Positions 5,587-25,311 of a stretch of 25,311 nt of DNA are shown piece after piece. Every line of letters starts with the position of its first letter. Position 1 is the first letter of the stretch. The DNA comes from a virus. The DNA lies in IMG/VR virus record IMGVR_UViG_3300037189_023016, positions 1 to 25,311 of that record; one strand, written 5' to 3'. Made by a program: the position numbers and the translations under genes. The notes under the pieces are model-generated. The model ran no database searches. It had not been told where the DNA came from and was given only the letters and a program-made list of their open reading frames with translations.

Positions 5587-5605
5587 TGCTGATGTATGGT
5601 TTTGT

Positions 5606-5613
5606 TATAAATA
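5606..5613 (-). promoter_or_regulatory. TATTTATA element before the 503-aa fibre gene
   Basis: TATTTATA is followed by ACAAAACC and lies 19 bases before the ATG at 5586. It comes immediately after the terminator at 5622-5645, which isolates this gene from the fibre array upstream. Confidence 0.6.
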
Positions 5614-5621
5614 TACACAAA

Positions 5622-5645
5622 AAAAGGCCTCCTTAGAGACCTTTT
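5622..5645 (-). terminator. Intrinsic terminator after the 120-aa partner gene
   Basis: The stem AAAAGG-C-CTC/GAG-A-CCTTTT has ten positions with one mismatch and a four-base loop. On the minus strand it is followed by a run of seven T. It lies 20 bases after the stop of the 6028-5666 gene and closes the paralogous fibre array. Confidence 0.75.
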
Positions 5646-5665
5646 AATTTTTAAATTCAAGGTTA

Positions 5666-6028
5666 TTAAACAGATCCTGAGAGGATACCTATTTGGAGTT
5701 GGAATGGTCCCTTGATAAGGCTATCACTTAATCCACCAGTTGAAAAGGTTTGGATAATTAATGCATTAGAGGAAGTAGTATATACTATAAATCCACTACT
5801 TGTATCACTTTGGTTTAAAGGAGTATAGGCGAATTGAATACCTAAACTACCTGTTGTAGATCCTGAAGAGACGGTGGGGGCAAAGTTACCTGAGGATACA
5901 AGTCGATATGTTCCGGCACTTAGTCTAGACCAAGATCCGGTAATGGAATTTTTGCCTCCTAATGAGGCGGTGATTGAGCCGGTTCCAGTTTGGGTTAAGC
6001 TTGCAGAATATAGTACGTAAAGGGGCAT
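5666..6028 (-). CDS. Small fibre-associated protein, copy B (120 aa)
   Basis: This 120-residue, Ser/Thr/Gly-rich protein of predicted beta character starts MPLYVLYSASLTQTG. It is a paralogue of the 123-aa protein at 7845-7474. The shared pattern is LYSASLTQTG, ITAS, ITGSW, a Tyr-plus-Ser stretch, TGSL.I...YTP, a hydrophobic strand, then LIKG..Q..IGI near the C-terminus. Each copy directly follows a paralogous large fibre gene, so the pair looks duplicated as a fibre-plus-partner cassette. A role as a fibre tip, fibre-capping or assembly partner is inference from context. I do not recognise a known family. The gene is closed by the terminator at 5622-5645. Confidence 0.6.
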   Translation of the reverse strand: MPLYVLYSASLTQTGTGSITASLGGKNSITGSWSRLSAGTYRLVSSGNFAPTVSSGSTTGSLGIQFAYTPLNQSDTSSGFIVYTTSSNALIIQTFSTGGLSDSLIKGPFQLQIGILSGSV

Positions 6029-6055
6029 GTTATTTTATTTTTTGATAATGTTATT

Positions 6056-6063
6056 TATAAATA
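6056..6063 (-). promoter_or_regulatory. TATTTATA element before small partner copy B
   Basis: TATTTATA directly abuts the stop codon of the upstream fibre gene (6064-6066). It lies 27 bases before the ATG at 6028, the longest spacing of the set. Confidence 0.5.
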
Positions 6064-7449
6064 TTACAATGATTCGTAATCTATCACTATTTTTACTTTA
6101 AGACCATTTATATATGCATTTTGGTTATGTTCGAGAAATACACCAAAATTACTTACATAATACATATCTAATGTTATTAATGAATAATCCTCTGCAATAG
6201 GGTCATATACAAGTCCATTGGGAATAGCTCCTAAAAGTGTCATTCCCGCTCCTTTACCTAAAAACATGTATGGTTGAGAATTATTAAAATATGGATTTGC
6301 ATTTAAATCCAATTGATAATAAGTTGTCCCAGGATCACCAGGGTTAGCGGATAAATTTCCTGTAAAATCATATGCTGAAAGAGGCACATATCCTGGATTG
6401 AGGGGTACTAAAGTGCCTGGTGTTGAAAATGCAGTAGTTCCTAAGCTGTTTAGGATTAATCCACCTTGCCAAAATCCGGAAGTGTTAATAGAGTTAGCAA
6501 ACGGAGTGTAAATATTAGTAATAAGAGTTTCTGCAACTGAACTATTAAGGAATTGAGGGTCAGCATGGATAGTAGTTCCTTGTTGATAAAAATCTAATCT
6601 AGCATCAGCTGAGTAATTTATGGATAGATATGATCCTATAGAAGAAGATAGATTAGTATATACCTTTATACTGTTTATTTTTTTCCAAGCAGTACTTGGG
6701 AGTTGAGAAACATTTGTATAAGCATATGTTACGTATTGGTTTCCAAATACAGTACTCCCTAAATAGGCATCATGTAAAGGTCTATTAAGTATATTATAGC
6801 TATCTATGTTTTGACCTATTCCTATCCCACCTGTTACATATATGTTATTACTAATTATACCTATAGCTTGATAAAAGAATTGATTTGGAGCAAGGCTTTG
6901 AGTTACAAGTATACCTCCAATTACATCAGATTGAACCACTCCACTAGGAGTAGGAGGAGATACAATAGACCAACCACCAGGGAGTGGATTCTCCCAACAT
7001 ACAAATTTATATGCTATACCATCAGAAGGAAGTGTAGTAGAGCTATTTGTGATACCATTAATACTTCCACCACTAACACCTGGAAAGATGTGAATTGGGA
7101 TTCCACTAAGGTTGATTAATGTTACTTCTTTGCCTTTATTAGGGATTTGAGGAAGTTTAACACAGTAGTTATCAGCATTAGCATAACTTATAACATTTAC
7201 CCCATAATTTAAAAATACAGTTCCGTTAGTAGTTGAAAATCCTAAAGAATCTAAAGATGAAGTTCCACTAGCAGAAATATTAGCTACAGGATTAACTACT
7301 CCATTACCTATATTTGGGAATCTTAAGTCTCCACTAGATGTAATAGCAGTACCTACAGATAAAGCACCTGAAATATAAGTAATAGAGGAGCTTAAATGTA
7401 AAGTATCACCAGAATAGGGTTGGGTGTTATTGACTTGTAATGTGCTCAT
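6064..7449 (-). CDS. Paralogous tail fibre, copy 3 (461 aa)
   Basis: This is the last of three tandem fibre paralogues. It starts MSTLQVNNTQPYSGDTL. Residues ~36-175 form the conserved N-terminal module (SSGDLRFPNIGNGVVNPVAN; NYGVNVISYANADNYCVKLP; NKGKEVTLINLSG; VCWENPLPGGWSIVS). Residues ~176-340 are unlike the other copies. Then LNPGYVPLSAYDFTG and NPGDPGTTYYQLD mark the second conserved block. The C-terminus YINGLKVKIVIDYESL matches the other copies. No chaperone or peptidase domain is visible. The inferred role is host recognition, with conserved ends for virion attachment and trimer closure and a divergent centre. It is followed by small partner copy B. Confidence 0.7.
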   Translation of the reverse strand: MSTLQVNNTQPYSGDTLHLSSSITYISGALSVGTAITSSGDLRFPNIGNGVVNPVANISASGTSSLDSLGFSTTNGTVFLNYGVNVISYANADNYCVKLPQIPNKGKEVTLINLSGIPIHIFPGVSGGSINGITNSSTTLPSDGIAYKFVCWENPLPGGWSIVSPPTPSGVVQSDVIGGILVTQSLAPNQFFYQAIGIISNNIYVTGGIGIGQNIDSYNILNRPLHDAYLGSTVFGNQYVTYAYTNVSQLPSTAWKKINSIKVYTNLSSSIGSYLSINYSADARLDFYQQGTTIHADPQFLNSSVAETLITNIYTPFANSINTSGFWQGGLILNSLGTTAFSTPGTLVPLNPGYVPLSAYDFTGNLSANPGDPGTTYYQLDLNANPYFNNSQPYMFLGKGAGMTLLGAIPNGLVYDPIAEDYSLITLDMYYVSNFGVFLEHNQNAYINGLKVKIVIDYESL

Positions 7450-7462
7450 GTTGGTTTTTGAG

Positions 7463-7470
7463 TATAAATA
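7463..7470 (-). promoter_or_regulatory. TATTTATA element before fibre copy 3
   Basis: TATTTATA, then CTCAAAAACCAAC (13 bases), then ATG at 7449. It lies three bases after the stop of the 123-aa gene. Confidence 0.6.
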
Positions 7471-7473
7471 TTA

Positions 7474-7845
7474 TTAGGAATCAATGCCAATTATAAATTG
7501 TAGATTTCCTTTAATGAGGTTATTAGCTAAAGAGCTACTTGTTTCTCCAGCTATAGTATTAACAACTATATGCCTAAGAGAAGAACTCTGATATATAAAA
7601 ATACTAGCTGTATCAGTGCTTGAAAAAGAAGGAGTATAGGTATAACCTATAACTAAACTTCCTGTTGCTGAGCCAGACGGTCTATAATCTGGGAATAGTC
7701 TAATAGACGAAGAAAAGATATATTTTCCTGGGGATGAGTATAACCATGATCCAGTGATGGTTGTATCTTTAGCGCTAACAGAAGCAGTTATAGGAGCTGA
7801 TCCGGTTTGAGTTAAGCTAGCTGAGTATAGGGTTCTGAATGCCAT
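7474..7845 (-). CDS. Small fibre-associated protein, copy A (123 aa)
   Basis: This is the paralogue of the 120-aa protein at 6028-5666. It starts MAFRTLYSASLTQTGSAPIT and ends LIKGNLQFIIGIDS. It is Ser/Thr-rich with alternating hydrophobic residues, consistent with an all-beta fold, and has no signal peptide or membrane segment. It begins 19 bases after the stop of fibre copy 2 with no TATTTATA element or Shine-Dalgarno in that gap, so it is likely expressed from the same transcript. No copy follows fibre copy 1, which suggests that the duplication unit was fibre plus partner and that one partner was lost or never present. Function is unknown. Confidence 0.6.
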   Translation of the reverse strand: MAFRTLYSASLTQTGSAPITASVSAKDTTITGSWLYSSPGKYIFSSSIRLFPDYRPSGSATGSLVIGYTYTPSFSSTDTASIFIYQSSSLRHIVVNTIAGETSSSLANNLIKGNLQFIIGIDS

Positions 7846-7864
7846 TTTATTATAGGGGGTATTA

Positions 7865-9349
7865 TTAAATAGGGGTATATTCTATTACCATTTGGAGTTG
7901 TAAGCCATTAATATAAACAGGAGTATAAAATATAGGTATAACTCCAAATCCACCATTCCATCTCATGTCATATACTCCAGATACTCCATTATCATTGGTT
8001 GCAGAAATAGTATCTACAATATAAGAACCAATTCCTTTAGTTATAAACGAAAAATATGGATCAGCAGTAGTCATATTAGATAAATTGTAGGTGTAATAAG
8101 TAGTACCCGGATCACCAACATTAGCTGCTAAATCTCCAGTAAAATCCATTTCACTAATAGGAACATAACTTGGATCAACAGGTGTAAAAGTACCAGGTAC
8201 GTTATTAACAGTTAAAAGTCTTTGGTTAGAATAAGACATTATTCCTCCTCCTGCCCATATTGTAGGATCCCAGTATGGATCAATTTCTAAAGTATTGTGA
8301 GCGAAATCAAGGAGCTGGGTGTTATTAAAGTTAGTAAGAGCAGCAGTTGACGTAAAGTCACTGTTATATAGCGCAACAGTTCCAGGGTCATATAGCTCTA
8401 CATATTCTGTAGTGCCTGCTATATATGGAGTAACATAAAAACTACCTGCAAATCTAATACTAGCTAACCCATTAGTGTGGGGAGAAATAAATTGTGCATA
8501 ATTATTTGATTGCACATTTGATGCTGAGAAGTTGGTATAAATTGTTATAGTATTAATTTTAAGCCAAAATTCACTAGGATCGGATATATGGGTATACCAA
8601 TTGTTAGGGGATATAGTAATTAATGCTGTTCCAACTGTTGCAATAGGTTGAATAAAGTAATTATTTGGGTTTGTTTGGGGAAAATAATTTCTAGAATACC
8701 CTGTAAACCCAGACGAACCTTCTCCTGAATATAGATACATAGCATCATTTACCATGGGAAGTTCATCCCACCATGCAAATCCTCCAGCAGCAGGCATACT
8801 AGCAGAAATAAGGATACCGCCAATAACCCCACTATTAACTACATTAGTGGTTCCAGTACTAACTAAAGACCAACCACCAGGAAGCGGATTTTCCCAGCAT
8901 ACAAATTTATACGCAGTGCCATTAGATGGAATAGTAATATCATTATTAATAAGACCATTCAAACTTCCACTAGTAGACCCAGGGAAGAGGTGAATATTCA
9001 TACCACTATTATTAACAACTGTTACTTCTTTACCTTTAGTAGGAGTAAGAGGTAATCTTACACAATAGCTTTGGCTATTGGCAAATGTAATAACATTAAC
9101 TCCATAATTTAAATAAGTAGAAGTATTAGTAAAATTATTTCCATTTGGATTTAAAGATGAAGTACCACTAGCGGATATGTTAATCACAGGATTAACTACT
9201 CCATCACCCATGTCTGGGAATCTTAGGTCTCCACTTGAAGTGATAGATCTATTAGCTATTAAATTTTCACTAGCTTCTACAAAAGTCCCGCTAACATTAA
9301 GGGTACTTCCAGAATATGGAAATATAGTATTTACTTGTAAAGTACTCAT
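7865..9349 (-). CDS. Paralogous tail fibre, copy 2 (494 aa)
   Basis: This is the middle member of the array, starting MSTLQVNTIFPYSGSTLNVS. Its N-terminal module (SSGDLRFPDMGDGVVNPV; NYGVNVITFANSQSYCVRLP; KGKEVTVVNNSG; VCWENPLPGGWSLVS) aligns codon for codon with copies 1 and 3. The centre (~175-385) is the longest and most different of the three, Tyr/Trp/Asn-rich (for example GGFAWWDELPMVNDAMYLYS). The conserved PGTFTPVDPSYVPISEMDFT and NPGDPGTTYY-type block (here NVGDPGTTYYTYN) follow. The protein ends YINGLQLQMVIEYTPI. It starts 20 bases after the previous stop and has no TATTTATA element, so it is probably transcribed with copy 1. The likely role is as an alternative receptor-binding fibre, inferred from architecture. 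Confidence 0.7.
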   Translation of the reverse strand: MSTLQVNTIFPYSGSTLNVSGTFVEASENLIANRSITSSGDLRFPDMGDGVVNPVINISASGTSSLNPNGNNFTNTSTYLNYGVNVITFANSQSYCVRLPLTPTKGKEVTVVNNSGMNIHLFPGSTSGSLNGLINNDITIPSNGTAYKFVCWENPLPGGWSLVSTGTTNVVNSGVIGGILISASMPAAGGFAWWDELPMVNDAMYLYSGEGSSGFTGYSRNYFPQTNPNNYFIQPIATVGTALITISPNNWYTHISDPSEFWLKINTITIYTNFSASNVQSNNYAQFISPHTNGLASIRFAGSFYVTPYIAGTTEYVELYDPGTVALYNSDFTSTAALTNFNNTQLLDFAHNTLEIDPYWDPTIWAGGGIMSYSNQRLLTVNNVPGTFTPVDPSYVPISEMDFTGDLAANVGDPGTTYYTYNLSNMTTADPYFSFITKGIGSYIVDTISATNDNGVSGVYDMRWNGGFGVIPIFYTPVYINGLQLQMVIEYTPI

Positions 9350-9369
9350 GTTTTTTTTATATATTTTTA

Positions 9370-10773
9370 TTATGGGTATGGAACGTAATCTATAATAACT
9401 TTTAATTTTAAGCCATCTATGTATGCTCTTCTATCTAAAAGAAAACGGAAACCAAAATTTGAAAAATACCAAATATCTATCTGGTCACCATCAGCATCTG
9501 TAATTCCTGGAGGTGTTGTGGCTATATTAAACATACCTACACCCTTACCAAAACTATTACCCCAAGAACTGCTAGAGTTATCACTATTGCTACGATCAGT
9601 ATAATAATATGTTGTACCAGGATCGCCTGGGTTAGTAGATAAGTACCCGGTCCAGTCAAAGGTAGAAGTAGGAACATAGTTAGGGTCTGCAGGAGTAAAA
9701 GTACCAGGTATATAGTCTATAATAGAAGAATTACCATTATAAGTACTATAAAAAGGACCCATTGAAGCATATCCGTATCCCCCTGGGAAACTAAGATCAT
9801 CTAGCGCTAAGTCGTTAAAAAATTCAGGCACTCCTGAAGTATTGTTAAACCAGTTTACATAGGTAGGGTCTTCATAATCAAAATAATTTGCTTCTGTAGT
9901 AGTACCTGTTTTAAAGAACCCTATATTACCATGATATACAACGACAAAATTAATAGGGTCAGGGGATGAAGATTCTCCAGAAGAAGATAAATTAGTAAGT
10001 ATTGTTATATTATTTATTTTTCTAATATTAGGTTCTGGGGTGAAAAACGCATATGGAGATGTAGGGCCTGTACCATAGTGACCAGCACCATGAAGATTTC
10101 CATTAAGTAAATAAGAGCCGTTGGCGAATTCAGCAGCAGAAAAAGTGGTTTGACCTCCTAAATCATATAAAGTATTACTAACAAATGCGTTAACTTGGTA
10201 AAAAGTTGAGGTAGAAAACGCGCTTTGGGTTATAAGTAAACCTCCAATTACATCGGATTGAATAACGGTAGAAGCACCCGCACTAACTAAAGACCAACCT
10301 CCAGGAAGCGGGTTTTCCCAACACACGAATTTATATGCTATACCATCAGAGGGAATAGTAATATCATTACCTACAACACTATTAACACTTCCTCCTTCTA
10401 CTCCAGGAAACACATATACTGGGAGTCCACTGAGGTTGACTAGGGTTACTTCTTTACCTTTAGTAGGTGTAGAAGGTAATTTAACACAGTAGTTATCTGC
10501 ATCTGAGTAATTTATAACATTAATTCCATAGTTTAGGAATGTTGTAGAGGTAGTAGTAGATATACCTATAGGGCTAAGTGATGAGGTTCCGCTAGCAGAA
10601 ACATCAGTTACAGGGTTAACTACCCCTGTTCCCATATTTGGGAATCTTAAATCTCCACTAGAAGTAATAGAAGTATTAACTGTTAGTGATCCAGATATTA
10701 ATACGGTAGATCCACTTAAAATTAGTGTATCTCCGGAATATGGTTGGAGGGTATTTACTTGTAAAGTACTCAT
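9370..10773 (-). CDS. Paralogous tail fibre, copy 1 (467 aa)
   Basis: This is the first member of the array, starting MSTLQVNTLQPYSGDTLILS. The N-terminal module covers residues 1 to ~174 and includes SSGDLRFPNMGTGVVNPV, NYGINVINYSDADNYCVKLP and VCWENPLPGGWSLVS, then DVIGGLLITQS. A divergent centre follows, then PGTFTPADPNYVPTSTFDWT and NPGDPGTTYYYTD. The last 30 residues contain FGFRF and YIDGLKLKVIIDY. The ATG lies seven bases after the stop of the SHAEG-repeat fibre gene, so translational coupling is likely. Unlike copies 2 and 3, no small partner gene follows; copy 2 starts 20 bases after its stop. No enzymatic motif was seen. Confidence 0.7.
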   Translation of the reverse strand: MSTLQVNTLQPYSGDTLILSGSTVLISGSLTVNTSITSSGDLRFPNMGTGVVNPVTDVSASGTSSLSPIGISTTTSTTFLNYGINVINYSDADNYCVKLPSTPTKGKEVTLVNLSGLPVYVFPGVEGGSVNSVVGNDITIPSDGIAYKFVCWENPLPGGWSLVSAGASTVIQSDVIGGLLITQSAFSTSTFYQVNAFVSNTLYDLGGQTTFSAAEFANGSYLLNGNLHGAGHYGTGPTSPYAFFTPEPNIRKINNITILTNLSSSGESSSPDPINFVVVYHGNIGFFKTGTTTEANYFDYEDPTYVNWFNNTSGVPEFFNDLALDDLSFPGGYGYASMGPFYSTYNGNSSIIDYIPGTFTPADPNYVPTSTFDWTGYLSTNPGDPGTTYYYTDRSNSDNSSSSWGNSFGKGVGMFNIATTPPGITDADGDQIDIWYFSNFGFRFLLDRRAYIDGLKLKVIIDYVPYP

Positions 10774-10780
10774 GTGTATA

Positions 10781-12400
10781 TTAAGATAATCTTATTTGTA
10801 ATGTGTTTCCATTTCTATAAATTCCACCAACGACTACACCTAAAAGAGCAGCAGCAGCATCACTTATAGCATTAGGAAGGGTATTTAAATCTAAAGTTAC
10901 ACTTCCGTTAAGGTTAGTTTCACCACTAACTTGCAATGTTTGTGATTGAAGTTGTTGTGGAGTAGCTATTTCACCTAAAACAGTAAGGAATGAATTATTT
11001 TGTACAATAGCTTCATTAGGTAATCCAACAGTAGGTCCAAATAATACAGCATTGTTATTTGAAGGTACATCTATGTTATAGTTAACAATCTGTGGAGTAA
11101 CAAATGTACCATCTACAGTTACAGATCCTGTTACTGTTACAGTATCATTAGCATATGTAAAGCTTGGGCTACCAGCAAATGTATCATTATCATTGAATTG
11201 TATCTCAGTATTGTTACCACCTGGAGTTCCACTTCCACCGCTACCTGATGATGCTTCTATATATCCTAATCTGCCTGTAGTAGGATTAAAACTTACTACA
11301 TATCCTGAAGCGGATAATGGGATGCCTTGAAGGAATACATTAGATGCGCTTATTTGGAAATGAGAAGCAGATGCAAATAATAAATTGCGTCTGTTACTAA
11401 CTGATGTGCCTCCACCTATAATAAATGCGCTTTGAGAAGCAACAGCAAGGTTATATTGACCTACTACAGTTTGATATGAACCTGTAGCTATGGAATATAA
11501 ACCTTCAGCGTGGGAATAATTACCTGTTGCTGTTGTAAGGCGTCCTTCAGCATGTGAACCTACACCTGTTGCTTGAGTAGAATCACCTTCAGCATGTGAG
11601 TAGTTACCAGTAGCAGAAGCATTATTACCTTCAGCATGTGATGCTTCACCAGTAGCAGAGGTTTTAGAACCTTCAGCATGTGCTCCTATTCCTGAAGCTG
11701 TATTACCTGTACCTTCAGCATGTGAATAAAGACCTGATGCTACAGTAAGTTGTCCTTGTGCGTGTGAAAAATTACCGCTAGAAGTTACTGAGACACCTTG
11801 AGAAAATGATCCTGTTCCTGAAGCTTGGTTAAGTCTACCAACAGAAAATGAACCTCGTCTGCCTATACTACCTGAACCAGCTATAAGGGTTTCTACATAA
11901 ACCATCCCACTAGATAATGGATTTCCGGTTACTCCTAATTCGCCTATGGCTTTAATAGAAGCTACTACTCCTCCTGTAGCTGTAGTAAAGTTTACAGATC
12001 CAGTTCCTACATAAACCGATTTCCAGAATTGGGTTTCAGAACCCAAGGATAAATCATTATTACCTGAAGGAGGGAGGAGTGGGGAGGAAAGTTGAATACC
12101 ACCACTTGAATTAATGCTTATACTTGAGGTGGTTTTATTACCACCTGAACCTGATACAAATTTGATAGATCCATCACCTACCCATACATCAGCCCAAGCA
12201 TGGTTTTCATCTCCTAAACTAAAGCTAGAAGTTACGATTCCATTTATTGGATCTAGATCATAGCCAGATGCAGGAATAATACTTCCTGATATGGACATAG
12301 ACCCAGAAATACCGTGGGATCCGGTGAAGTATCTAAAATTATTATCAATTTCGTCAGTAGTTAACGGGCGATTGATTTCACTTCTAAATGTTAATGCCAT
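10781..12400 (-). CDS. Tail fibre with YadA-like SHAEG head repeats (539 aa)
   Basis: The protein begins MALTFRSEINRPLTTDEIDN, a leader common to phage fibre and baseplate-attached proteins. Two similar beta segments follow (SLGDENHAWADVWVGDGSIK and SLGSETQFWKSVYVGTGSVN). Residues ~181-310 hold about nine to ten 14-residue units with the core SHAEGxxTxATG. These resemble the left-handed parallel beta-roll repeats of YadA/Hia-type trimeric adhesin heads (established for that family). Next come QSAFIIGGGTSVSNRRNLL and a second shaft (GGNNTEIQFNDNDTFAGSPS). The C-terminus ends GIYRNGNTLQIRLS. I infer a trimeric fibre or whisker-like appendage, possibly adhesive. It has its own TATTTATA element and leads into the paralogous fibre array. 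Confidence 0.7.
   Translation of the reverse strand: MALTFRSEINRPLTTDEIDNNFRYFTGSHGISGSMSISGSIIPASGYDLDPINGIVTSSFSLGDENHAWADVWVGDGSIKFVSGSGGNKTTSSISINSSGGIQLSSPLLPPSGNNDLSLGSETQFWKSVYVGTGSVNFTTATGGVVASIKAIGELGVTGNPLSSGMVYVETLIAGSGSIGRRGSFSVGRLNQASGTGSFSQGVSVTSSGNFSHAQGQLTVASGLYSHAEGTGNTASGIGAHAEGSKTSATGEASHAEGNNASATGNYSHAEGDSTQATGVGSHAEGRLTTATGNYSHAEGLYSIATGSYQTVVGQYNLAVASQSAFIIGGGTSVSNRRNLLFASASHFQISASNVFLQGIPLSASGYVVSFNPTTGRLGYIEASSGSGGSGTPGGNNTEIQFNDNDTFAGSPSFTYANDTVTVTGSVTVDGTFVTPQIVNYNIDVPSNNNAVLFGPTVGLPNEAIVQNNSFLTVLGEIATPQQLQSQTLQVSGETNLNGSVTLDLNTLPNAISDAAAALLGVVVGGIYRNGNTLQIRLS
11455..11860 (-). repeat. 42-bp coding repeats (14-residue SHAEG units)
   Basis: About ten degenerate 42-bp units lie inside the 539-aa fibre gene. 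The plus strand shows repeated ccttcagcatgtga. Amino-acid units include YSHAEGTGNTASGI, GAHAEGSKTSATGE, ASHAEGNNASATGN, YSHAEGDSTQATGV and GSHAEGRLTTATGN. The outermost units are degenerate (GSFSQG, FSHAQG, YQTVVG). Confidence 0.8.
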
Positions 12401-15402: not shown

Positions 15403-17085
15403 TTAGAGAGCATTCAAGCCACTAACAAAAATTCTACCATAGAATTCAGGACGTAACATCTTCTTAGCGTAGCGAGTCAACAGACCTTTACGTGGAGTGA
15501 AGGTATTTGGATCGTACACAAGAGGAGTCATAATCAACGGAATATATGGAGCAAATACAGCACCAGCTTCCAAGAATTGGCTACCACGGAAACCTAACAA
15601 GATCACGTTTTCGGTCATGTATGGGTTCTTATAAACTTGGTAGCGACCATTCAATGAACCGGCTTTCTGTACACCAAATGCATATTCCATCTGAGCAGCA
15701 TCACCATTGTTGTTAGCAGCGAATCCTGGGATTGATTCGAGAACTGTAGCAACTGTTGGAGAGCATACCAAGAAGTTAGCACCACCACGAAGAGTCAACT
15801 GGTGAATCTTGTTGCTAAGCTTTTGAATCTTAGTACCAAGAGTTTGGAACCATTGGCCCTGGGTGTTGTAGAAACCAGTTTGTGAGGTTGAAGTTGGGAA
15901 GTCGAATCCATTAGTGTTTGCACTGTTGTAAACACCGTTGTTCAACACAGTCCAGTATTCATCACCAGCACCAGCATCTTCAATCAACATATCCATGATT
16001 TCGAGGTCAATTTCCAATGAAATATACTCGCTCATGATGTTAGTCAATTCAGCTTCAGCATCCAAGTTTTGATATGCATTCAAGTCTTGAGCAAATTCAG
16101 GAGTCCATACTGCCTTTAACTTTTTAGTCTTAGCTGTAATGGCTTGAGATTGCATCGAGATGTTAATTTCTGGGATAGAAATTGTAGTTGCACTCTGAGC
16201 GTTTGGAACTGAGTATGAAGTAGCTGCAGTATCTTCAAAATCACCACGAGCATTATCAGCAGTCTTCTTGTTATAGAAAACAGTGAATGTAGAAGCAGCT
16301 ACTGGAGTAGTGTTAGAAGCAGTAACAAAGAAGGTAATCAATGAGTTAGTGTAATCATAGGTTGTAAATGCAGGCAAGTTATTACCAGCAGTAACTACAG
16401 AAGCTGAAGTGATTACAAATGCTCTTACACCATCTGGGTCGAAGTTAGCAGAAATAGAACCAGTTGGGATGGTAATTTTTCTAACTTGGCTAGCAGCAAC
16501 AGAAGCAGAAAGCGAAGAGTCAAAACCAACCTCAGCCCAAGTAGCAGCACCTGCAGCATAACCTGAAACAGATGAGCTTACTGAAGAAGAGAATTGGTTA
16601 GTAGAGTAAGCAAAGCGACCAGCACCATACAAACCACCAGAAGGAGCTGGGGTTGCGAATGGATATCGGCCACCAGTATTGCGATTACCGTACATAGAAC
16701 CACCTGAAGAGAATGGGTTTTTATCAGTGCCGTACTGGAAATCCAAGAAGAATACCAGACCAGAAGGCAAGTTCATTGGTTGAACGCTAACGAATTCTTT
16801 CGCTGCGATCTGACCAAATACCTTACGTACCAATGGCAGTGCGATACCAGCCCACTGCTCACCAGTACCTACAGTAAATGTAGCACCAGTGCCAGTTTGA
16901 GATGATTCAATTACTAATTGTTTTGCTTGGTTTTCAAGCATAAGAGACATGTTGTTCTTATCAGTCTCACTTCCGAGACCTTCCAACAACCCTGTCTTAG
17001 CCCACTTGTGGGCCAGTTTAGCTGCATCGCTTTGGAGTGATTTCCAAGGATTTGCAGATTCTAAAAGGTTCTGAATTGTGTTCAT
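15403..17085 (-). CDS. Major capsid protein (gp23-like)
   Basis: This 560-residue protein is the head shell subunit, somewhat longer than T4 gp23 (521). The N-terminal prodomain contains WAKTGLLEGLGSE (~28-40). A likely gp21 cleavage site is QLVIE60/S61, close to the T4 position (after Glu65). VRKVFGQIAAKEFVSVQPMN (~86-105) and the following PSGLVFFLDFQYG match the HK97-fold gp23 family. So do KTKKLKAVWTPEFAQDLNAY and AELTNIMSEYISLEID, the equivalents of T4 'LKAAYSIELAQDL...AELSGILATEIMLEIN'. A Ser/Thr-rich region at ~155-290 looks like an inserted surface domain. Local base composition is richer in G+C and C-ending codons than the neighbours, fitting very high expression. It follows the scaffold gene by 33 bases and ends at a strong terminator. 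Confidence 0.95.
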   Translation of the reverse strand: MNTIQNLLESANPWKSLQSDAAKLAHKWAKTGLLEGLGSETDKNNMSLMLENQAKQLVIESSQTGTGATFTVGTGEQWAGIALPLVRKVFGQIAAKEFVSVQPMNLPSGLVFFLDFQYGTDKNPFSSGGSMYGNRNTGGRYPFATPAPSGGLYGAGRFAYSTNQFSSSVSSSVSGYAAGAATWAEVGFDSSLSASVAASQVRKITIPTGSISANFDPDGVRAFVITSASVVTAGNNLPAFTTYDYTNSLITFFVTASNTTPVAASTFTVFYNKKTADNARGDFEDTAATSYSVPNAQSATTISIPEINISMQSQAITAKTKKLKAVWTPEFAQDLNAYQNLDAEAELTNIMSEYISLEIDLEIMDMLIEDAGAGDEYWTVLNNGVYNSANTNGFDFPTSTSQTGFYNTQGQWFQTLGTKIQKLSNKIHQLTLRGGANFLVCSPTVATVLESIPGFAANNNGDAAQMEYAFGVQKAGSLNGRYQVYKNPYMTENVILLGFRGSQFLEAGAVFAPYIPLIMTPLVYDPNTFTPRKGLLTRYAKKMLRPEFYGRIFVSGLNAL

Positions 17086-18882: not shown

Positions 18883-20475
18883 TTATTTAGCGTCTTTTGT
18901 GCCTGGGATTTCCTTCATACCTGCTTTTTTAAGTGCAGTTGTAGATGCTGAACTAGTAGCTACTACAGGTTTATCGGTTGAGGTAGTAGGGTCATCAAAT
19001 AATGCTTCATCAACATCTTTTTTACCTTTATTTAATTTCTTTTTAGCTGATTCTAGTTTTTTAATATCAGCATTTAATTCTTTAATTTTTTTAGGATTAA
19101 CAGAATCTTCTTCGAGTTCAGTTAAAGTAGTTAACGCTTTAAGTTTTTTCTTGCGCTTGGTAATTTCTTCATCAATTTTTTTACCCATAGCTTTTTTCTT
19201 AGCATCTTCACCTACTTCTTCAATTTCTTTCATATTAAGTGCTTCCTTAATAAGAGTAGATATTGTTGAGCGTAATTTAGATTCTTCTAAAGATTCATTC
19301 ATTGAGTTATATGGGGGAAGATCTACTTCAGTCCAACCTAACCATGCACCTGCTTTTAGTGCTGCTTGATAGTATTCTTCAGCTTTTGTTAAGTCACCTT
19401 CACTGTATGCTTCTAAACCTTTTTCGTAATATTCATTAGCCTGGGCCATACTTTCCATATCCGAATCTCTATCACCATCTGAATCATCATACATTGCTGA
19501 TTCGCTTAGATTACCGTATCCTGAAGATTTATATTTACCCTTAGCTGGTTTTGATTCGCCTAATCCTGGGGCATCTGTGGTGTAACCTATGCCTTTAATA
19601 CCAAATTGAGCATTTTCAACATAGTGGTTAATATTTTTAACTAAATTTTTAGCCACAATAGACTTTACTTCATCTACACTTTTATCCTTATTTTTAGGAT
19701 CTTTAATTTCAGCATAGTATCCTACTAAAAATGCTTGACCATAAACATTATCAATGTTTTTAGGATCTTTATAATCATAGCCTTGAGTAGCCATATCGGT
19801 TACTTCTTTAGTAGTTTCTTTTTCTATAGCTTTAGCTTCTTTAGCTTCAGTTAAGTTTTTTAGGTACTGTAGGCCAAAATCTTCTATGTTTTTCTTTAAC
19901 AGCTCATATTGGGCTATCATTTCTTCATATTGGGCATCATCCTCTTCTTCCCCTTCATTTTGAGGCTTTTTAGCATCTTTAGCTGCTTGTTTCATAGATT
20001 CTTTTTTATTGCCATCGTTATCTAAATCTAAGAAATCAGGTTTAGCTTTTTTAGCTTCTGTTGTATTTTCAAATTTAATACCACTAGTAGCTCCTTGTTG
20101 TAAAGCCATTACTACATCAAATTCTCCAACATTAAATTTAGAAGCGGCATCTTTCATTGAAACACGACCTGCATTTTGATTATAATATTCAACAGCTTTT
20201 TTGATGTTTTCTTGATTTTTAGCAGTATCATCTTCTTTAAGTTTATTCATATTCTCATTAAAGATAGAATGCCAATCAGGTGTTTTACCTTTAGTAACTA
20301 CACCACCAATACCCTCACTTAAAATACTTTTATTTTTTAAGATACCAACAGCATCATCATATGATGTATATTGATTTACGTATTCTGGGAAGATATTGCG
20401 TACTGATTTCATGAAGAAATCTTTATTGCCCTTACCTTCTTTAATAAGGTTATATTGTTCTTGAAGTGTTTTCAT
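18883..20475 (-). CDS. Putative prohead core protein (530 aa, charged)
   Basis: This highly charged, largely helical protein starts MKTLQEQYNLIKEGKG, between the portal and protease genes where core proteins are encoded. Residues ~90-127 resemble a helix-turn-helix-like segment (GRVSMKDAASKFNVGEFDVV). Residues ~146-166 carry DFLDLDNDGNKKESMKQAA, similar to a calcium-binding DxDxDG loop. Residues ~345-378 resemble a single tetratricopeptide unit (ANEYYEKGLEAYSEGDLTKA). Lys-rich coiled coil follows at ~425-490. At least seven [L/I]-x-E sites precede A, G or S (IKEG, LSEG, LTEA, LGES, LSES, LEES, IKEA), suggesting cleavage by gp21. A core or internal head protein role is inferred from place, charge and cleavage sites. 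No close T4 homologue was recognised. Confidence 0.55.
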   Translation of the reverse strand: MKTLQEQYNLIKEGKGNKDFFMKSVRNIFPEYVNQYTSYDDAVGILKNKSILSEGIGGVVTKGKTPDWHSIFNENMNKLKEDDTAKNQENIKKAVEYYNQNAGRVSMKDAASKFNVGEFDVVMALQQGATSGIKFENTTEAKKAKPDFLDLDNDGNKKESMKQAAKDAKKPQNEGEEEDDAQYEEMIAQYELLKKNIEDFGLQYLKNLTEAKEAKAIEKETTKEVTDMATQGYDYKDPKNIDNVYGQAFLVGYYAEIKDPKNKDKSVDEVKSIVAKNLVKNINHYVENAQFGIKGIGYTTDAPGLGESKPAKGKYKSSGYGNLSESAMYDDSDGDRDSDMESMAQANEYYEKGLEAYSEGDLTKAEEYYQAALKAGAWLGWTEVDLPPYNSMNESLEESKLRSTISTLIKEALNMKEIEEVGEDAKKKAMGKKIDEEITKRKKKLKALTTLTELEEDSVNPKKIKELNADIKKLESAKKKLNKGKKDVDEALFDDPTTSTDKPVVATSSASTTALKKAGMKEIPGTKDAK

Positions 20476-20480
20476 TGTGT

Positions 20481-20978
20481 TTATTGGGGTTGAAAAAGTT
20501 CTATTAAATCATCTAAATATTCCTTAGCAGTACTAGTACTATAACGTAAATCATACGATGGATTAGCTTTATAGTAATTTAATGTATCTTGTTTAGCTGC
20601 GGATATTAATGGGATGAGCTCATTAATTTGAGACTCAAGTTTATCATAATCTGTAATGCGGCCAGCTACATGCTGTTTTAATTCTTTATCGTCTATACCA
20701 AGACTATCAAGATAACTTTGTAAATCAAATGCCGCTTCTTCTTTAAGCGGTTTACCCCATAAATGTTTTATAATAAATTTAGATTTTTTATTTAATTGGG
20801 ATTGATTTACTTTTTTAAAACCTAACTTATCTACATAATAATTTTTAGCTACCCCAGCAACCGGAGTAGGATATGACATATCCTGTCCCGGAGAATAAGA
20901 AGCACCAGTACCCGTAGCACTCATTTCTTTAATAGTAGTGCGAATAAGTTCTTTTATGTGTTTGGGGAGAGTGGTCAT
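20481..20978 (-). CDS. Conserved-type head-module protein (165 aa), function unknown
   Basis: This 165-residue protein starts MTTLPKHIKELIRTTIKEMS. Residues ~22-31 (TGTGASYSPG) resemble the segment just after the predicted cleavage site of the major capsid protein (TGTGATFTVG). Here too it follows an I-x-E sequence (IKE18). The rest is helical with a C-terminal segment STAKEYLDDLIELFQ. The start overlaps the previous stop as ATGA, and the next gene starts five bases after its stop, so it belongs to the portal-to-protease unit. An internal-head or assembly role is inferred from context only. Confidence 0.5.
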   Translation of the reverse strand: MTTLPKHIKELIRTTIKEMSATGTGASYSPGQDMSYPTPVAGVAKNYYVDKLGFKKVNQSQLNKKSKFIIKHLWGKPLKEEAAFDLQSYLDSLGIDDKELKQHVAGRITDYDKLESQINELIPLISAAKQDTLNYYKANPSYDLRYSTSTAKEYLDDLIELFQPQ

Positions 20979-21829
20979 GAAATTTGTTTTAATTCTTCTA
21001 ACAATTCATAATATTGGAGTAAACTAACCATATGATCATTAGTTACTGGGGATGTTTTGTCTAATTCAGTTAAGAATGTGGTTACTTCTGTTAACTTAAT
21101 TTTGGTTACAGCATCCTTAATATTAGGAAGAAGTTGAAGGATTTCTTCTTTAATTTCAGATATCTTAGTGTTGTAAAAAGTTTTTAATTTTACAACCGAG
21201 TCAGTAGAATTGATAAATTCTTTTAGGACTAGTTTTTGGTTAGAGTTTAAGTTATTATACTTAGTATTAAACTTTTCTAAAAGAATCTTATATGTTAAAG
21301 TGCGTAAATCTTTATCATATGATTTAAATTCTTCCATAACTTCTTCTTCTACAGTCTTTTTATCCACATTAGAAGAAGTCAAATGCTCTAATAAAGTTAA
21401 CTTATTGTTAATAATTTGATTAGGATTTGAAGGAGAATTTTGGGTATAATTTTCTAATAAAATATATATAGAAGCTTGGGTTTTATAATTAGGAAGTTTA
21501 GTTTTAAAAAACTCATCTATATTATAGTGTTGCTTAACTTCTTTTATCAAATTATATTTTTGTCTTTTTAATACGGACTGGTTAAGGTGTTTAGCCGAGT
21601 CAATGACTGTTGAGATAACTATATCTGCTTTGGCTTCACTAATGTTGGTATGCTTTAGGAGAGTTTCATATAGTTTATATTCTCTTCCTAATTCAGTTTT
21701 GATAAAATGTTTTTTAAGAATATCAACAGCCTTAGATTCTTTGTTAGATAGTGTATCAGATGTAATCTGTCTTACTAACAATTCAAAAATAATCCCAGTA
21801 TTTTTGTATTTGGAATGTTTGATTTCCAT
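20975..21829 (-). CDS. Head-module helical protein (284 aa), function unknown
   Basis: The ATG at 21829 gives MEIKHSKYKNTGIIFELLVR. A TTG three bases upstream would add one residue, but ATG is preferred and keeps a 12-base distance to the TATTTATA element. The protein is almost entirely predicted helix, Lys/Leu-rich, with no enzyme motif, signal peptide or membrane segment. It lies directly after the portal gene, where T4-like phages encode prohead core or portal-associated proteins. It ends in the four-base ATGA overlap with the 165-aa gene. I infer an assembly or core role from position; I do not recognise a named family. Confidence 0.5.
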   Translation of the reverse strand: MEIKHSKYKNTGIIFELLVRQITSDTLSNKESKAVDILKKHFIKTELGREYKLYETLLKHTNISEAKADIVISTVIDSAKHLNQSVLKRQKYNLIKEVKQHYNIDEFFKTKLPNYKTQASIYILLENYTQNSPSNPNQIINNKLTLLEHLTSSNVDKKTVEEEVMEEFKSYDKDLRTLTYKILLEKFNTKYNNLNSNQKLVLKEFINSTDSVVKLKTFYNTKISEIKEEILQLLPNIKDAVTKIKLTEVTTFLTELDKTSPVTNDHMVSLLQYYELLEELKQIS

Positions 21830-21841
21830 CAAATTTTTTAT

Positions 21842-21849
21842 TATAAATA
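21842..21849 (-). promoter_or_regulatory. TATTTATA element before the 284-aa head gene
   Basis: TATTTATA, then ATAAAAAATTTG (12 bases), then ATG at 21829. It lies 11 bases after the portal stop codon. It would serve the unit running to the protease terminator. Confidence 0.6.
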
Positions 21850-21860
21850 TATATGAGCCC

Positions 21861-23774
21861 TTATTCCTTTATTTGAGATTCGTCTAATAGTGATTCCTTT
21901 TCCTTATCAGTATTAAATACTAATTTTTTGTTTAGACTTTCAAATAAAATTCTATTTTTAGATAATGAAGAGTGGGCTGTTTCTAAAGCTAAAGGTGAGC
22001 CTCCTTTAAAATTATTTTTTAAATTTTTATCCTCACCAGTATCATCACCTTGTTTCATACCCATTGCTCCTAATCTATCTTTACCAAGTGCATTGTCTTG
22101 GGTACCAATATCAGAAACTTTCTCTTCAGGACGACCTTGTTCTAAATCCTCTCCATATCCTGCAGGTACTCCTTCGGAATTACTAGCATATCGACCTTTA
22201 CCATATAAATAAGCTAAATCATGTGGGGTACCATAAGATTTACCAGATTCAACAGGATCGTTACCTTCATTTTCAATTTGTTTTAATCTGAAGATACGTT
22301 TTTGGTCTTGGATAATTAGATCTCTATATTCATCGTATTGGTCTTCACTGAGGTGGAATATATTATCGTAGATCCAGTCTGTGGGGAGCAATTTACCATC
22401 AACTATGTTTTTAGCTAAATCTACTTTTTCTTTCATCAATGCTATTCTCTCTTGGTCATAAATGATTGAAGGAGTAGTTAATGAAATTTCAAAGTTGGTT
22501 AGATTATCACCTTTGTAACCCTGTGTATATAAATGTACTAAAGCAATTTTATACAACTCAGATAACATAATACGTTGTATGCGGTCAATAGTACGAGCAA
22601 AACGAATATCTTCAGCTGCTAATGTTGCTTTACCCGTTAAATCTTTTTCATAGCCCATAAATGCTTTAGGTACTTTTAGAGCAGCAAATAGTTTATCTCT
22701 TAAATAAACTACGTCATCCATACCTGTATATTCTAAGCCTTTAGTAGGTTCAATTCTAGTAGTAGTATCATTACCTCTAACTGGTATGTAAAAGTCCTCT
22801 AGTGAGTTTTGGAGGTTATATTTTAAATTATATTCCCCACTTTCAGGGTCCATGTATGGAGTGCGCTTCATAGAAGTAATAGTCTTCTGCATGAAGTTTT
22901 CAACTTCATTTGGAGGAATAGAACCTACATTAACATAAAAAATACGTTTTTCTGGAGCGCGGACAATACGGTGAATGAGCATTGCATCTTCCATAAGTAC
23001 GTATTGCTTAAATAGCTTACGAGCTGGTTCTAGATATGAGCGGCCGTATGGGAGGTAATTGACATCAGTCATGAGTCTAAAGTGAGCCATTTCATAATTG
23101 TCAAAATACAAAGCATTTTCATCTTGTTTCTTATAGGAACCAAAAGAATTTGGAACTCCATAATATCCTGTTCCTCCAGCATATCCATCAGGATTAAACT
23201 TAAATCTAATAGCAGCCGGGGAATCTCTATCATATCCCTCTTCACGCATTATATGATATGCTGTGTATGGAATAACATTGTAGACTCCAAATTTTTCTGC
23301 GATTTCTAGTTTAAGGAAAAAATCACCGTATTTACACATTTGGCGAACCCAAGACCAAAGATTAAATTCAATATTCAATACATCATAAAATAAATTATAA
23401 AGTATTCTTTGAACATCTTCATCACTACTTCTTATTTGAAGTACTTCTCCCATGTCATTTTTAAGAGTACACTCATCTGCTATTATATCTAATGCTGAGG
23501 AAATAATGGCATCAGTATCCATAGAATCATAGTCTGAGTAAAGTTGAGGGCGAAGATACTGGTAGTTAAGATTTAATTGGGAGCCATATAATGAAGTGGT
23601 GTTGGTGGAATAGATTCGATTAAAACGATCCATAAGGGAATTATTCATGTATTCCCCAGTAGTTTGGATGCTATTAACATCCATTACTTTTAATTCATTC
23701 CCCCCGGCATTACGAATTATTACATCAGTAGAAAATAAACGTCTTAGTCGGGTAAATATATTTGTATCTGCCAT
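21861..23774 (-). CDS. Portal vertex protein (gp20-like)
   Basis: This 637-residue protein forms the dodecameric ring at the head vertex through which DNA enters and leaves; T4 gp20 has 524 residues. Diagnostic stretches are TDAIISSALDIIADECTLKN (~87-106) and LMEDAMLIHRIVRAPEKRIF (~260-279), matching T4 'LEDALVIYRLSRAPERRVWY'. Others are TRIEPTKGLEYTGMDDVVYL and the following KLFAALKVPKAFMG. The C-terminal ~110 residues are Gly/Asp/Ser-rich and low in complexity. They include candidate gp21 sites (LFES, LDES) near the end, so the tail may be trimmed during maturation (inference). It has its own TATTTATA element and starts 25 bases after the terminase nuclease stop. Confidence 0.93.
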   Translation of the reverse strand: MADTNIFTRLRRLFSTDVIIRNAGGNELKVMDVNSIQTTGEYMNNSLMDRFNRIYSTNTTSLYGSQLNLNYQYLRPQLYSDYDSMDTDAIISSALDIIADECTLKNDMGEVLQIRSSDEDVQRILYNLFYDVLNIEFNLWSWVRQMCKYGDFFLKLEIAEKFGVYNVIPYTAYHIMREEGYDRDSPAAIRFKFNPDGYAGGTGYYGVPNSFGSYKKQDENALYFDNYEMAHFRLMTDVNYLPYGRSYLEPARKLFKQYVLMEDAMLIHRIVRAPEKRIFYVNVGSIPPNEVENFMQKTITSMKRTPYMDPESGEYNLKYNLQNSLEDFYIPVRGNDTTTRIEPTKGLEYTGMDDVVYLRDKLFAALKVPKAFMGYEKDLTGKATLAAEDIRFARTIDRIQRIMLSELYKIALVHLYTQGYKGDNLTNFEISLTTPSIIYDQERIALMKEKVDLAKNIVDGKLLPTDWIYDNIFHLSEDQYDEYRDLIIQDQKRIFRLKQIENEGNDPVESGKSYGTPHDLAYLYGKGRYASNSEGVPAGYGEDLEQGRPEEKVSDIGTQDNALGKDRLGAMGMKQGDDTGEDKNLKNNFKGGSPLALETAHSSLSKNRILFESLNKKLVFNTDKEKESLLDESQIKE

Positions 23775-23787
23775 TTTTGGGTTTGTT

Positions 23788-23795
23788 TATAAATA
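23788..23795 (-). promoter_or_regulatory. TATTTATA element before the portal gene
   Basis: TATTTATA, then AACAAACCCAAAA (13 bases), then ATG at 23774. It sits inside an ATATTTATTTATA stretch. Confidence 0.6.
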
Positions 23796-23799
23796 AATA

Positions 23800-24432
23800 T
23801 TAGAATAACCACCTTAGGTCTTCTTGTTGACCTTTTATACCCATATTATACGGATTATTTTGAGAACTCCCACCATAAATGCCCTTAGATGCATTATTTG
23901 TTGAAGAAATATTATTTAAAGCGGTTCGAGTCATATCTAAACTCTGTTGTTGAAACTTTAGTGATGTGTCTCTTAAAAACATAGCCATCCCAAAACTCAT
24001 TACCAAGTCATCATTGTAACCAGATTGAGCTTCAGGGCGACCGTTTTTCCAAACGAACACCTTCATTTCTTCCAATAAACGTTTTGATTGAATAGTCACA
24101 GAGCGATCACCGATATACTCTCTAAATTTATTTATAACCAAAGGTCTGGTTCTTAAAGACATTGTAAATCCAGGAGTCATTGAAGAATCTCCTTCATATA
24201 CTCTTAAATAAGATTCAGCGGTAAGTTGTTCACTTTTGGGTGAGTGATAAAGATTTCTATATCCTCTTTCAATTATGGAGTCTAATGTAGCCCAGCCTAT
24301 GTTAGCATTTTCTACTACTAGTAAAGCATTATTATACTCAGATGCTAATCCTACTAAGAAATAACCAAATTCTTTAGGAGGTAATTGACCTCTATATTCA
24401 GCTACTTGAATGTTAGTTGCAATGTCAATCAC
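23800..24432 (-). CDS. Terminase large subunit, nuclease half (separated by in-frame TAA)
   Basis: This is the C-terminal RNase H-like nuclease domain of a gp17-like terminase, in the same frame as the ATPase half. The frame is open from 24498; the first usable start is a GTG at 24432. The 22 codons before that GTG encode TRDYIITADVARGDGKDFSA, which contains the first catalytic Asp (T4 gp17 Asp401 region), so a protein starting at the GTG would lack it. The other catalytic residues are present: Glu in LLVVENANIGW (T4 Glu458) and Asp in GYNDDLVMSFG (T4 Asp542). There is no ATG near the break and no Shine-Dalgarno. The stop is TAA followed by ACT. It could be a nonsense mutation, sequencing error or readthrough site. 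It ends EDLRWLF. Confidence 0.7.
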   Translation of the reverse strand: MIDIATNIQVAEYRGQLPPKEFGYFLVGLASEYNNALLVVENANIGWATLDSIIERGYRNLYHSPKSEQLTAESYLRVYEGDSSMTPGFTMSLRTRPLVINKFREYIGDRSVTIQSKRLLEEMKVFVWKNGRPEAQSGYNDDLVMSFGMAMFLRDTSLKFQQQSLDMTRTALNNISSTNNASKGIYGGSSQNNPYNMGIKGQQEDLRWLF

Positions 24433-24498
24433 ATGAGCTGCAGAAAAGTCTTTGCCATCTCCTCTAGCTACGTCAGCAGTAATGATGTAATCACGAGT

Positions 24499-25311
24499 TT
24501 AGTCTGCTGGTTCCCATACCCATAAATTTTGGTCGGCTCCTCGTTTTTCAATAGGGTCCTTGATGTTAGTTTCTTTAATAAAATCTATCCATTCAGGATA
24601 AAATACTACATCGCCTGAGGTGCTAAAGTCACAGTCACACTCTTGTGCTGCTATTCTAGGATCACCTAATAATTCATCTTGTTTTTTTCTCCAAGCATCA
24701 TCACGTTCAGGGTGAACAAACCATGGAAGTTTAATAGGCAAAAAATCATTTTCTTGAGATTCTGCTCTAACCCATGTTTGGTGAAACCAGTTACCTGTGC
24801 CATATGGTGTAGATAATACTATAGCTCCACCACCCGTTGCTAAGGTTTGTTGGGCTGAAGCCCAGATTTCACCAATTCCTTCAATAAATGCTGCTTCATC
24901 TACAATAAGAAGAGATACTGCTTCTGATCGACCTGCATCACTGCTAGCAGAAGTGGCTTTAATTTGAGAGCCATTACTAAGGCGTAGAGATAATTTGTTG
25001 TTCTCTTCAGCAGGTACTTTTAGCCAAGATGGTAAATTTTCAAACATGAATTTAACCTTGGTAACCATGTTACGGGCTGTTTCCTGTTTGGTAGCTATAC
25101 AAAGTACATTTTTATCTTTATGAAACAACATTAGCCACAGAGAATAACCTGCAGCTAATGTTGAAATTCCTAGTTGTCGAGATTTAAGAACTATAGAGTA
25201 TGGATTATCTTTCCATAAATTTAGTACTTTACCTTGAAATGGATAAAGATTAAAATGCACTCTACCTCGTTGAGGATGCTGGATAAAGCAGTATTTGTTC
25301 ATAAAGTGCGC
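24499..25311 (-). CDS. Terminase large subunit, ATPase half (5' end outside window)
   Basis: The ATPase motor domain of gp17, which drives DNA into the prohead. Walker A is SRQLGIST (compare T4 SRQLGKTT), Walker B is LLIVDEAAF, and the coupling motif is LSTPYGTG. The frame stays open to the right edge: the bases before the ATG at 25302 read GCG CAC TTT. The conserved FIQHP...RGRVHFNLYPFQ segment is usually internal in this family, so the true start probably lies outside the window. The reading frame ends at TAA 24501-24499 after LWVWEPAD, exactly where the linker to the nuclease domain lies, and resumes in the same frame. Together both halves would give a normal gp17 layout with no insertion or deletion. 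Confidence 0.9.
   Translation of the reverse strand, partial: AHFMNKYCFIQHPQRGRVHFNLYPFQGKVLNLWKDNPYSIVLKSRQLGISTLAAGYSLWLMLFHKDKNVLCIATKQETARNMVTKVKFMFENLPSWLKVPAEENNKLSLRLSNGSQIKATSASSDAGRSEAVSLLIVDEAAFIEGIGEIWASAQQTLATGGGAIVLSTPYGTGNWFHQTWVRAESQENDFLPIKLPWFVHPERDDAWRKKQDELLGDPRIAAQECDCDFSTSGDVVFYPEWIDFIKETNIKDPIEKRGADQNLWVWEPAD

What the first reader, a model, noticed from the sequence alone, without database searches (positions are those of the whole stretch)
24432..24501. Terminase large subunit split by one in-frame stop at the ATPase-nuclease linker
The frame reads ...LWVWEPAD-TAA-TRDYIITADVARGDG... with no shift, insertion or gap. Homologues of this linker generally have an aromatic residue in 'PDY..-Y...ADVARGD', so the TAA may replace a Tyr codon (TAT/TAC), one substitution away. 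The first nuclease Asp sits in the 22 codons between the stop and the first downstream start (a GTG). Reinitiation there would make a catalytically incomplete nuclease. Options: a real nonsense mutation in a defective or suppressor-dependent phage, stop readthrough that limits full-length terminase, a two-chain terminase using an ATT/ATC start, or a sequence error.
Basis: partly seen in the sequence, partly recalled or inferred. Interest (0 to 1): 0.75.

Follow-up and report, generated by a model that had tools for sequence, protein, structure and literature searches.

The report
Isolated stop codon in phage terminase
One DNA fragment of a T4-like phage has a single stop codon in its DNA-packaging gene, but an almost identical fragment of the same phage species and 218 other distinct related sequences do not, so this is a sequence error or a chance defective copy and not a new kind of split gene.

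Summary
A TAA at 24499-24501 (- strand) interrupts an otherwise uninterrupted T4-type large terminase (TerL), with no frameshift, and both halves match T4 gp17 collinearly. The interpretation as a split, read-through or two-chain terminase is not supported. A same-species contig (L230/L310, IMGVR_UViG_3300032304_002219) aligns to window 18902-25311 at 99.64% identity without gaps. It differs at 23 positions: 22 are synonymous, and the 23rd is this stop, where the sister contig has tyrosine and an intact 525-aa TerL. Every relative covering the codon (219 distinct pieces) has Tyr, and a scan of 2.9 million viral contigs for a stop in this context found none. The half after the stop shows no decay. 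TAA is the normal terminator in this record (21 of 23 genes), so reassignment is excluded. Two relatives carry similar lone stops at other TerL codons, which gives a background rate of about one TerL in a hundred. Best reading: a private single-base event, probably a consensus error, otherwise a nonsense allele in a defective genome. Reads are needed to tell these apart. Interest is low. Noticed in passing: a hairpin with strong synonymous covariation near the start of terL, cut by the window's end.

The parts
24499..24501 (-). in-frame TAA, codon 293 of the 525-codon terL (residue 268 counted from the ATG at 25302)
   Evidence: Tyr in the same-species contig and in all 219 distinct relatives
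24502..25311 (-). terL part before the stop (ATPase domain), 5' end cut by the contig end
   Evidence: Pfam Terminase_6N 1e-14; T4 gp17 alignment; full start seen in L310
23800..24498 (-). terL part after the stop (nuclease domain), frame open, three catalytic acidic residues present
   Evidence: no excess of amino-acid changes
24430..24432 (-). first downstream ATG/GTG/TTG codon (GTG, His-Val-Ile); ordinary sense codon
21861..23774 (-). portal protein (gp20-like), intact; context
   Evidence: PHROG 213, 3.5e-57; full-length in relatives
15403..17085 (-). major capsid protein (gp23-like), intact; context
   Evidence: PHROG 138, 6.8e-73

Best explanation
The window is a fragment of a T4-like phage of the group whose nearest isolates infect Flavobacterium. 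Its terL is an ordinary, continuous gene for a 525-residue terminase large subunit (ATPase motor plus RNase H-fold nuclease). In this one record a single base differs, turning a tyrosine codon that is invariant in the relatives compared into TAA. Shown: the change is private to this record and is the only protein-changing difference from a same-species contig. Inferred: it is a consensus (sequencing or assembly) error (about 0.6), or a recent nonsense allele carried by a defective genome (about 0.33). If real, it should block packaging, because separating the two domains of T4 gp17 abolishes DNA translocation. No programmed mechanism is involved.
For: Same-species contig L230/L310: 6,410 bp, 99.64%, no gaps, 23 differences; 22 synonymous plus the stop, with an intact 525-aa ORF. 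By my count, 21 of the 23 are transitions and the stop is one of only two transversions. Tyr at the codon in 219 of 219 distinct relatives (172 TAT, 47 TAC); 80 of 80 nearest hits. No decay after the stop: no private change at otherwise invariant columns, C/N divergence ratio 1.35 against 1.31 between relatives, and catalytic Asp, Glu and Asp kept. Background of lone stops elsewhere in TerL: L145 (TGA for Gly) and L272 (TAA for Gln), 2 in 222 pieces and 101,452 codons. Splitting gp17 at the linker abolishes translocation (PMC3012670).
Against: Reads, coverage and allele frequency were not available, so error and true allele cannot be separated. Only one same-species contig was found. The tools may hide records nearly identical to the window, so a second record with the stop could exist unseen.
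Confidence: 0.93

Rival explanations
1. The stop is real and is read through, by a phage or host UAA suppressor tRNA or a recoding signal, so that little full-length TerL is made.
For: The frame after the stop is fully conserved. One large relative (170 kb) carries 14 tRNA genes, so tRNA-rich members of the group exist.
Against: 21 of 23 genes in the window end in TAA, so a UAA suppressor would hit nearly every gene. Both large relatives scanned lack a UAA-reading tRNA; their 'taa' hits are tRNA-Leu with anticodon UAA, which reads UUA. RNA folding around the stop is no better than shuffles, z = -0.28 and 0.52. The same-species contig lacks the stop.
Confidence: 0.03
2. A functional two-chain terminase: an ATPase chain ending at the stop and a nuclease chain starting at the GTG or at an ATT/ATC codon.
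For: The stop lies close to the domain boundary, and T4 gp17 domains keep ATPase and nuclease activity when separated (PMC3012670).
Against: Not shared with any relative, including the same species. A GTG start loses the first catalytic Asp. Other genes in the window start with ATG, or with TTG in two cases, mostly after A/T-rich stretches, unlike the GTG context. Separated T4 domains do not translocate DNA.
Confidence: 0.01
3. Stop-codon reassignment in the late genes of this phage, as in crAss-like phages.
For: Late-gene reassignment is known in phages of Bacteroidetes and was detected through stops in TerL, MCP and portal (PMC7886860).
Against: The cases described there reassign TAG or TGA, not TAA. 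TAA is the usual terminator here, and no other gene aligned to relatives is interrupted by it.
Confidence: 0.005

Closest known systems
T4-type terminase large subunit (gp17; Pfam Terminase_6N, PHROG 2)
   Same: Collinear ATPase and nuclease domains over residues 3-445, catalytic acidic residues in place, next to portal and major-capsid genes of T4 type.
   Different: This record has one nonsense codon nine residues before the position of D401; the same-species contig does not.
Conditional-lethal (nonsense) mutants of T4 head and packaging genes
   Same: A single nonsense codon in an essential packaging gene; the phage would need a suppressor or a helper. From general knowledge; T4 gene 17 mutants are cited in PMC9026906.
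   Different: Laboratory mutants are verified. Here neither the allele's reality nor its frequency is known, and the codon is ochre.
Stop-codon reassignment in crAss-like phages (PMC7886860)
   Same: In-frame stops inside TerL of phages of Bacteroidetes.
   Different: Those genomes reassign TAG or TGA; here there is one TAA while TAA ends nearly every gene.

Membership tests
T4-type terminase large subunit | ATPase domain with Walker motifs, Terminase_6N | tested here: met
   Pfam PF03237 3.4e-14; SRQLGIST and LLIVDEAAF align to gp17
T4-type terminase large subunit | RNase H-fold nuclease with three catalytic acidic residues (T4 D401, E458, D542) | tested here: met
   Present after the stop at residues 277, 331 and 431/432, conserved in 139-140 of 140 relatives
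T4-type terminase large subunit | One continuous chain | tested here: not met
   Broken by TAA in this record only; intact in the same-species contig
Programmed stop-codon read-through | Stop conserved among relatives | tested here: not met
   0 of 219 distinct relatives, 0 matches in viral contigs
Programmed stop-codon read-through | Stimulating RNA structure at the stop | tested here: not met
   Folding no better than shuffles
Stop-codon reassignment | The stop codon recurs inside genes and is avoided as terminator | tested here: not met
   21 of 23 genes end in TAA; no other gene aligned to relatives interrupted
Stop-codon reassignment | Cognate suppressor tRNA in the genome | tested here: inconclusive
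   None in the window, in the two large relatives or in the sister contig; the rest of this genome is not held
Two-chain (split) terminase | Split shared within the lineage, with a start for the second chain that keeps the catalytic residues | tested here: not met
Sequencing or assembly error | Reads show the sense codon | not testable with these tools
   No reads available

The most novel reading that the evidence does not exclude
The stop is a true allele at appreciable frequency in one population of this phage and full-length TerL is made at a low level by natural UAA suppression, or the genome survives by complementation from intact co-infecting sisters.
Probability: 0.04. Interest if true: 0.5.

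Novelty: not a real feature. Interest (0 to 1): 0.08.

Why it matters
As a finding it matters little. It is a worked example of how to judge lone stops in metagenomic viral genes: look for a same-species contig, test for decay after the stop, and count background stops in the same gene. It also warns against reading domain-boundary stops as split genes. If the allele were real and common, it would show an essential packaging motor surviving on suppression or complementation in nature.

Tried and rejected
Frameshift, insertion or intron at the junction: none, alignments are gapless across it. Genetic-code change: rejected. Suppressor tRNA: none found where sequence was held. Recoding structure: rejected. 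Pseudogene decay: not seen; the synonymous/non-synonymous split against the nearest cross-species relatives was too diverged to add much. A first search for near-identical contigs missed the sister contig because it differs at a synonymous site inside the pattern; a protein search with a fast-evolving neighbour gene found it, and a degenerate pattern then returned it as the only viral contig with this local sequence. A scan of genome contigs for the stop version found nothing. A near-identity search of phage records found nothing.

Full report
Observation. The - strand of the window carries a TAA at 24499-24501 in an otherwise open frame. The two halves are one protein: read through, it matches T4 gp17 collinearly from residue 3 to 445 (E about 1e-31), Pfam Terminase_6N and PHROG 2. 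Neighbouring genes are the T4-type portal and major capsid protein. The closest isolate records are Flavobacterium phages vB_FspM_immuto (58% identity). By the printed alignment to 3ezk the stop corresponds to about residue 392 of gp17, nine residues before D401. It therefore lies at the beginning of the nuclease domain.

Relatives. A protein search gave 80 contigs at 75-86% identity; all have Tyr (TAT or TAC) at the position and none has any stop in the gene. With all loci fetched later, 219 of 219 distinct pieces have Tyr (172 TAT, 47 TAC).

Same species. A search with the fast-evolving 285-aa protein at 20975-21832 found IMGVR_UViG_3300032304_002219 (L230; whole record L310), 100% identical for that protein. 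It aligns to window 18902-25311 over 6,410 bp at 99.64% with no gap and 23 differences. Twenty-two are synonymous; the remaining one is the stop. By my count, 21 of the 23 are transitions, and the stop is one of two transversions. In L310 terL is an intact 525-aa ORF starting 25 codons upstream of the ATG at window 25302; the window is cut inside that leader. No other contig with this local sequence was shown. The tools warn that records very near the window may be left out.

Selection. The part after the stop shows no decay: no private amino-acid change at columns otherwise invariant among 140 near-full relatives, although this test has little power (only 4 of 140 relatives have one there). 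The ratio of divergence after and before the stop has a median of 1.35 for the window against 1.31 among relatives. The catalytic acidic residues are kept. So the stop is very recent, not real, or harmless. The first two are favoured, because 22 of 22 other differences within the species are synonymous: the lineage is under strong purifying selection, and a protein-ending change is the sole exception.

Background rate. In 222 distinct TerL pieces (101,452 codons) two other lone stops occur, at other codons: L145 has TGA where relatives have Gly, and L272 has TAA where relatives have Gln. Lone stops of this kind therefore appear in roughly one TerL in a hundred in this collection. Of the five further stops listed for portal, protease and PhoH-like genes, most lie in misaligned or frameshifted ends; L183 in the portal gene looks like another lone stop.

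Recoding. TAA terminates 21 of 23 genes of the window, and no other gene aligned to relatives is interrupted. No tRNA is found in the window or in the sister contig. Two large relatives have 14 and 4 tRNA genes, none reading UAA. RNA folding around the stop is not exceptional. Known phage reassignments described for crAss-like phages concern TAG and TGA (PMC7886860).

Function if real. In T4, gp17 cut at the linker keeps ATPase and nuclease activities but completely loses DNA translocation (PMC3012670). The chain before the stop here would lack the nuclease domain, and a chain from the GTG would lack the first catalytic Asp. A genome with this codon would thus be expected not to package its DNA without suppression or complementation (inference).

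Verdict. The stop is in the record, but it is a private single-base event and not a feature of the phage: probably a consensus error (about 0.6), otherwise a defective allele (about 0.33). Reads are needed to separate these.

In passing. The window ends inside a strong hairpin near the start of terL (codons about 15-26 of the 525-codon ORF; complete at L310 6400-6430; RNA -22.1 kcal/mol, z = -6.6). In relatives the stem joins wobble positions of separate codons. For the wobble bases of Lys17 and His24, 127 of 160 distinct sequences form a Watson-Crick pair against 77 expected by shuffling; none of 557 out-of-register wobble pairs shows as large an excess. On a FastTree tree, 16 of 16 same-branch changes at that pair are compensatory, against at most 4 for 101 control pairs. 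No Rfam family reaches its threshold, and the Flavobacterium phage immuto lacks the stem. The cause may be selection on an RNA or DNA structure, or templated mutation in a quasi-palindrome; this was not resolved. (Notebook entry 2 numbers these residues K19/H26; the correct numbers are K17/H24.)

Noticed in passing
L310 6400-6430 (- strand), half of it at window 25303-25311: Hairpin inside the first codons of terL (z = -6.6 in the sister contig) with strong synonymous covariation in relatives: wobble bases of Lys17 and His24 pair in 127 of 160 distinct sequences (77 expected), and 16 of 16 same-branch changes are compensatory (controls at most 4). No Rfam family. Possible RNA or packaging signal, or quasi-palindrome templated mutation.
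   Followed up: partly
L145 (terL, residue 347) and L272 (terL, Gln codon before TLATGG): Lone in-frame stops at other TerL codons in other contigs (TGA for Gly, TAA for Gln), giving the background rate.
   Followed up: yes
window 4075-12400: Series of related 461-503 aa proteins beginning MSTLQVN/MSTIKVN, alternating with 120-123 aa proteins, and one 539-aa protein with repeated SHAEG motifs; most have no match in the fetched relatives. They look like a variable fibre or adhesin cassette.
   Followed up: no
window 25303-25311: The ATG at 25302 is not the gene start; the sister contig shows 25 further codons upstream, so annotation of this contig would misplace the start.
   Followed up: yes
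L200 1763-5886: A 170-kb relative carries a cluster of 14 tRNA genes, including one with an odd four-base anticodon call (aaat); another relative (163 kb) has only four.
   Followed up: no
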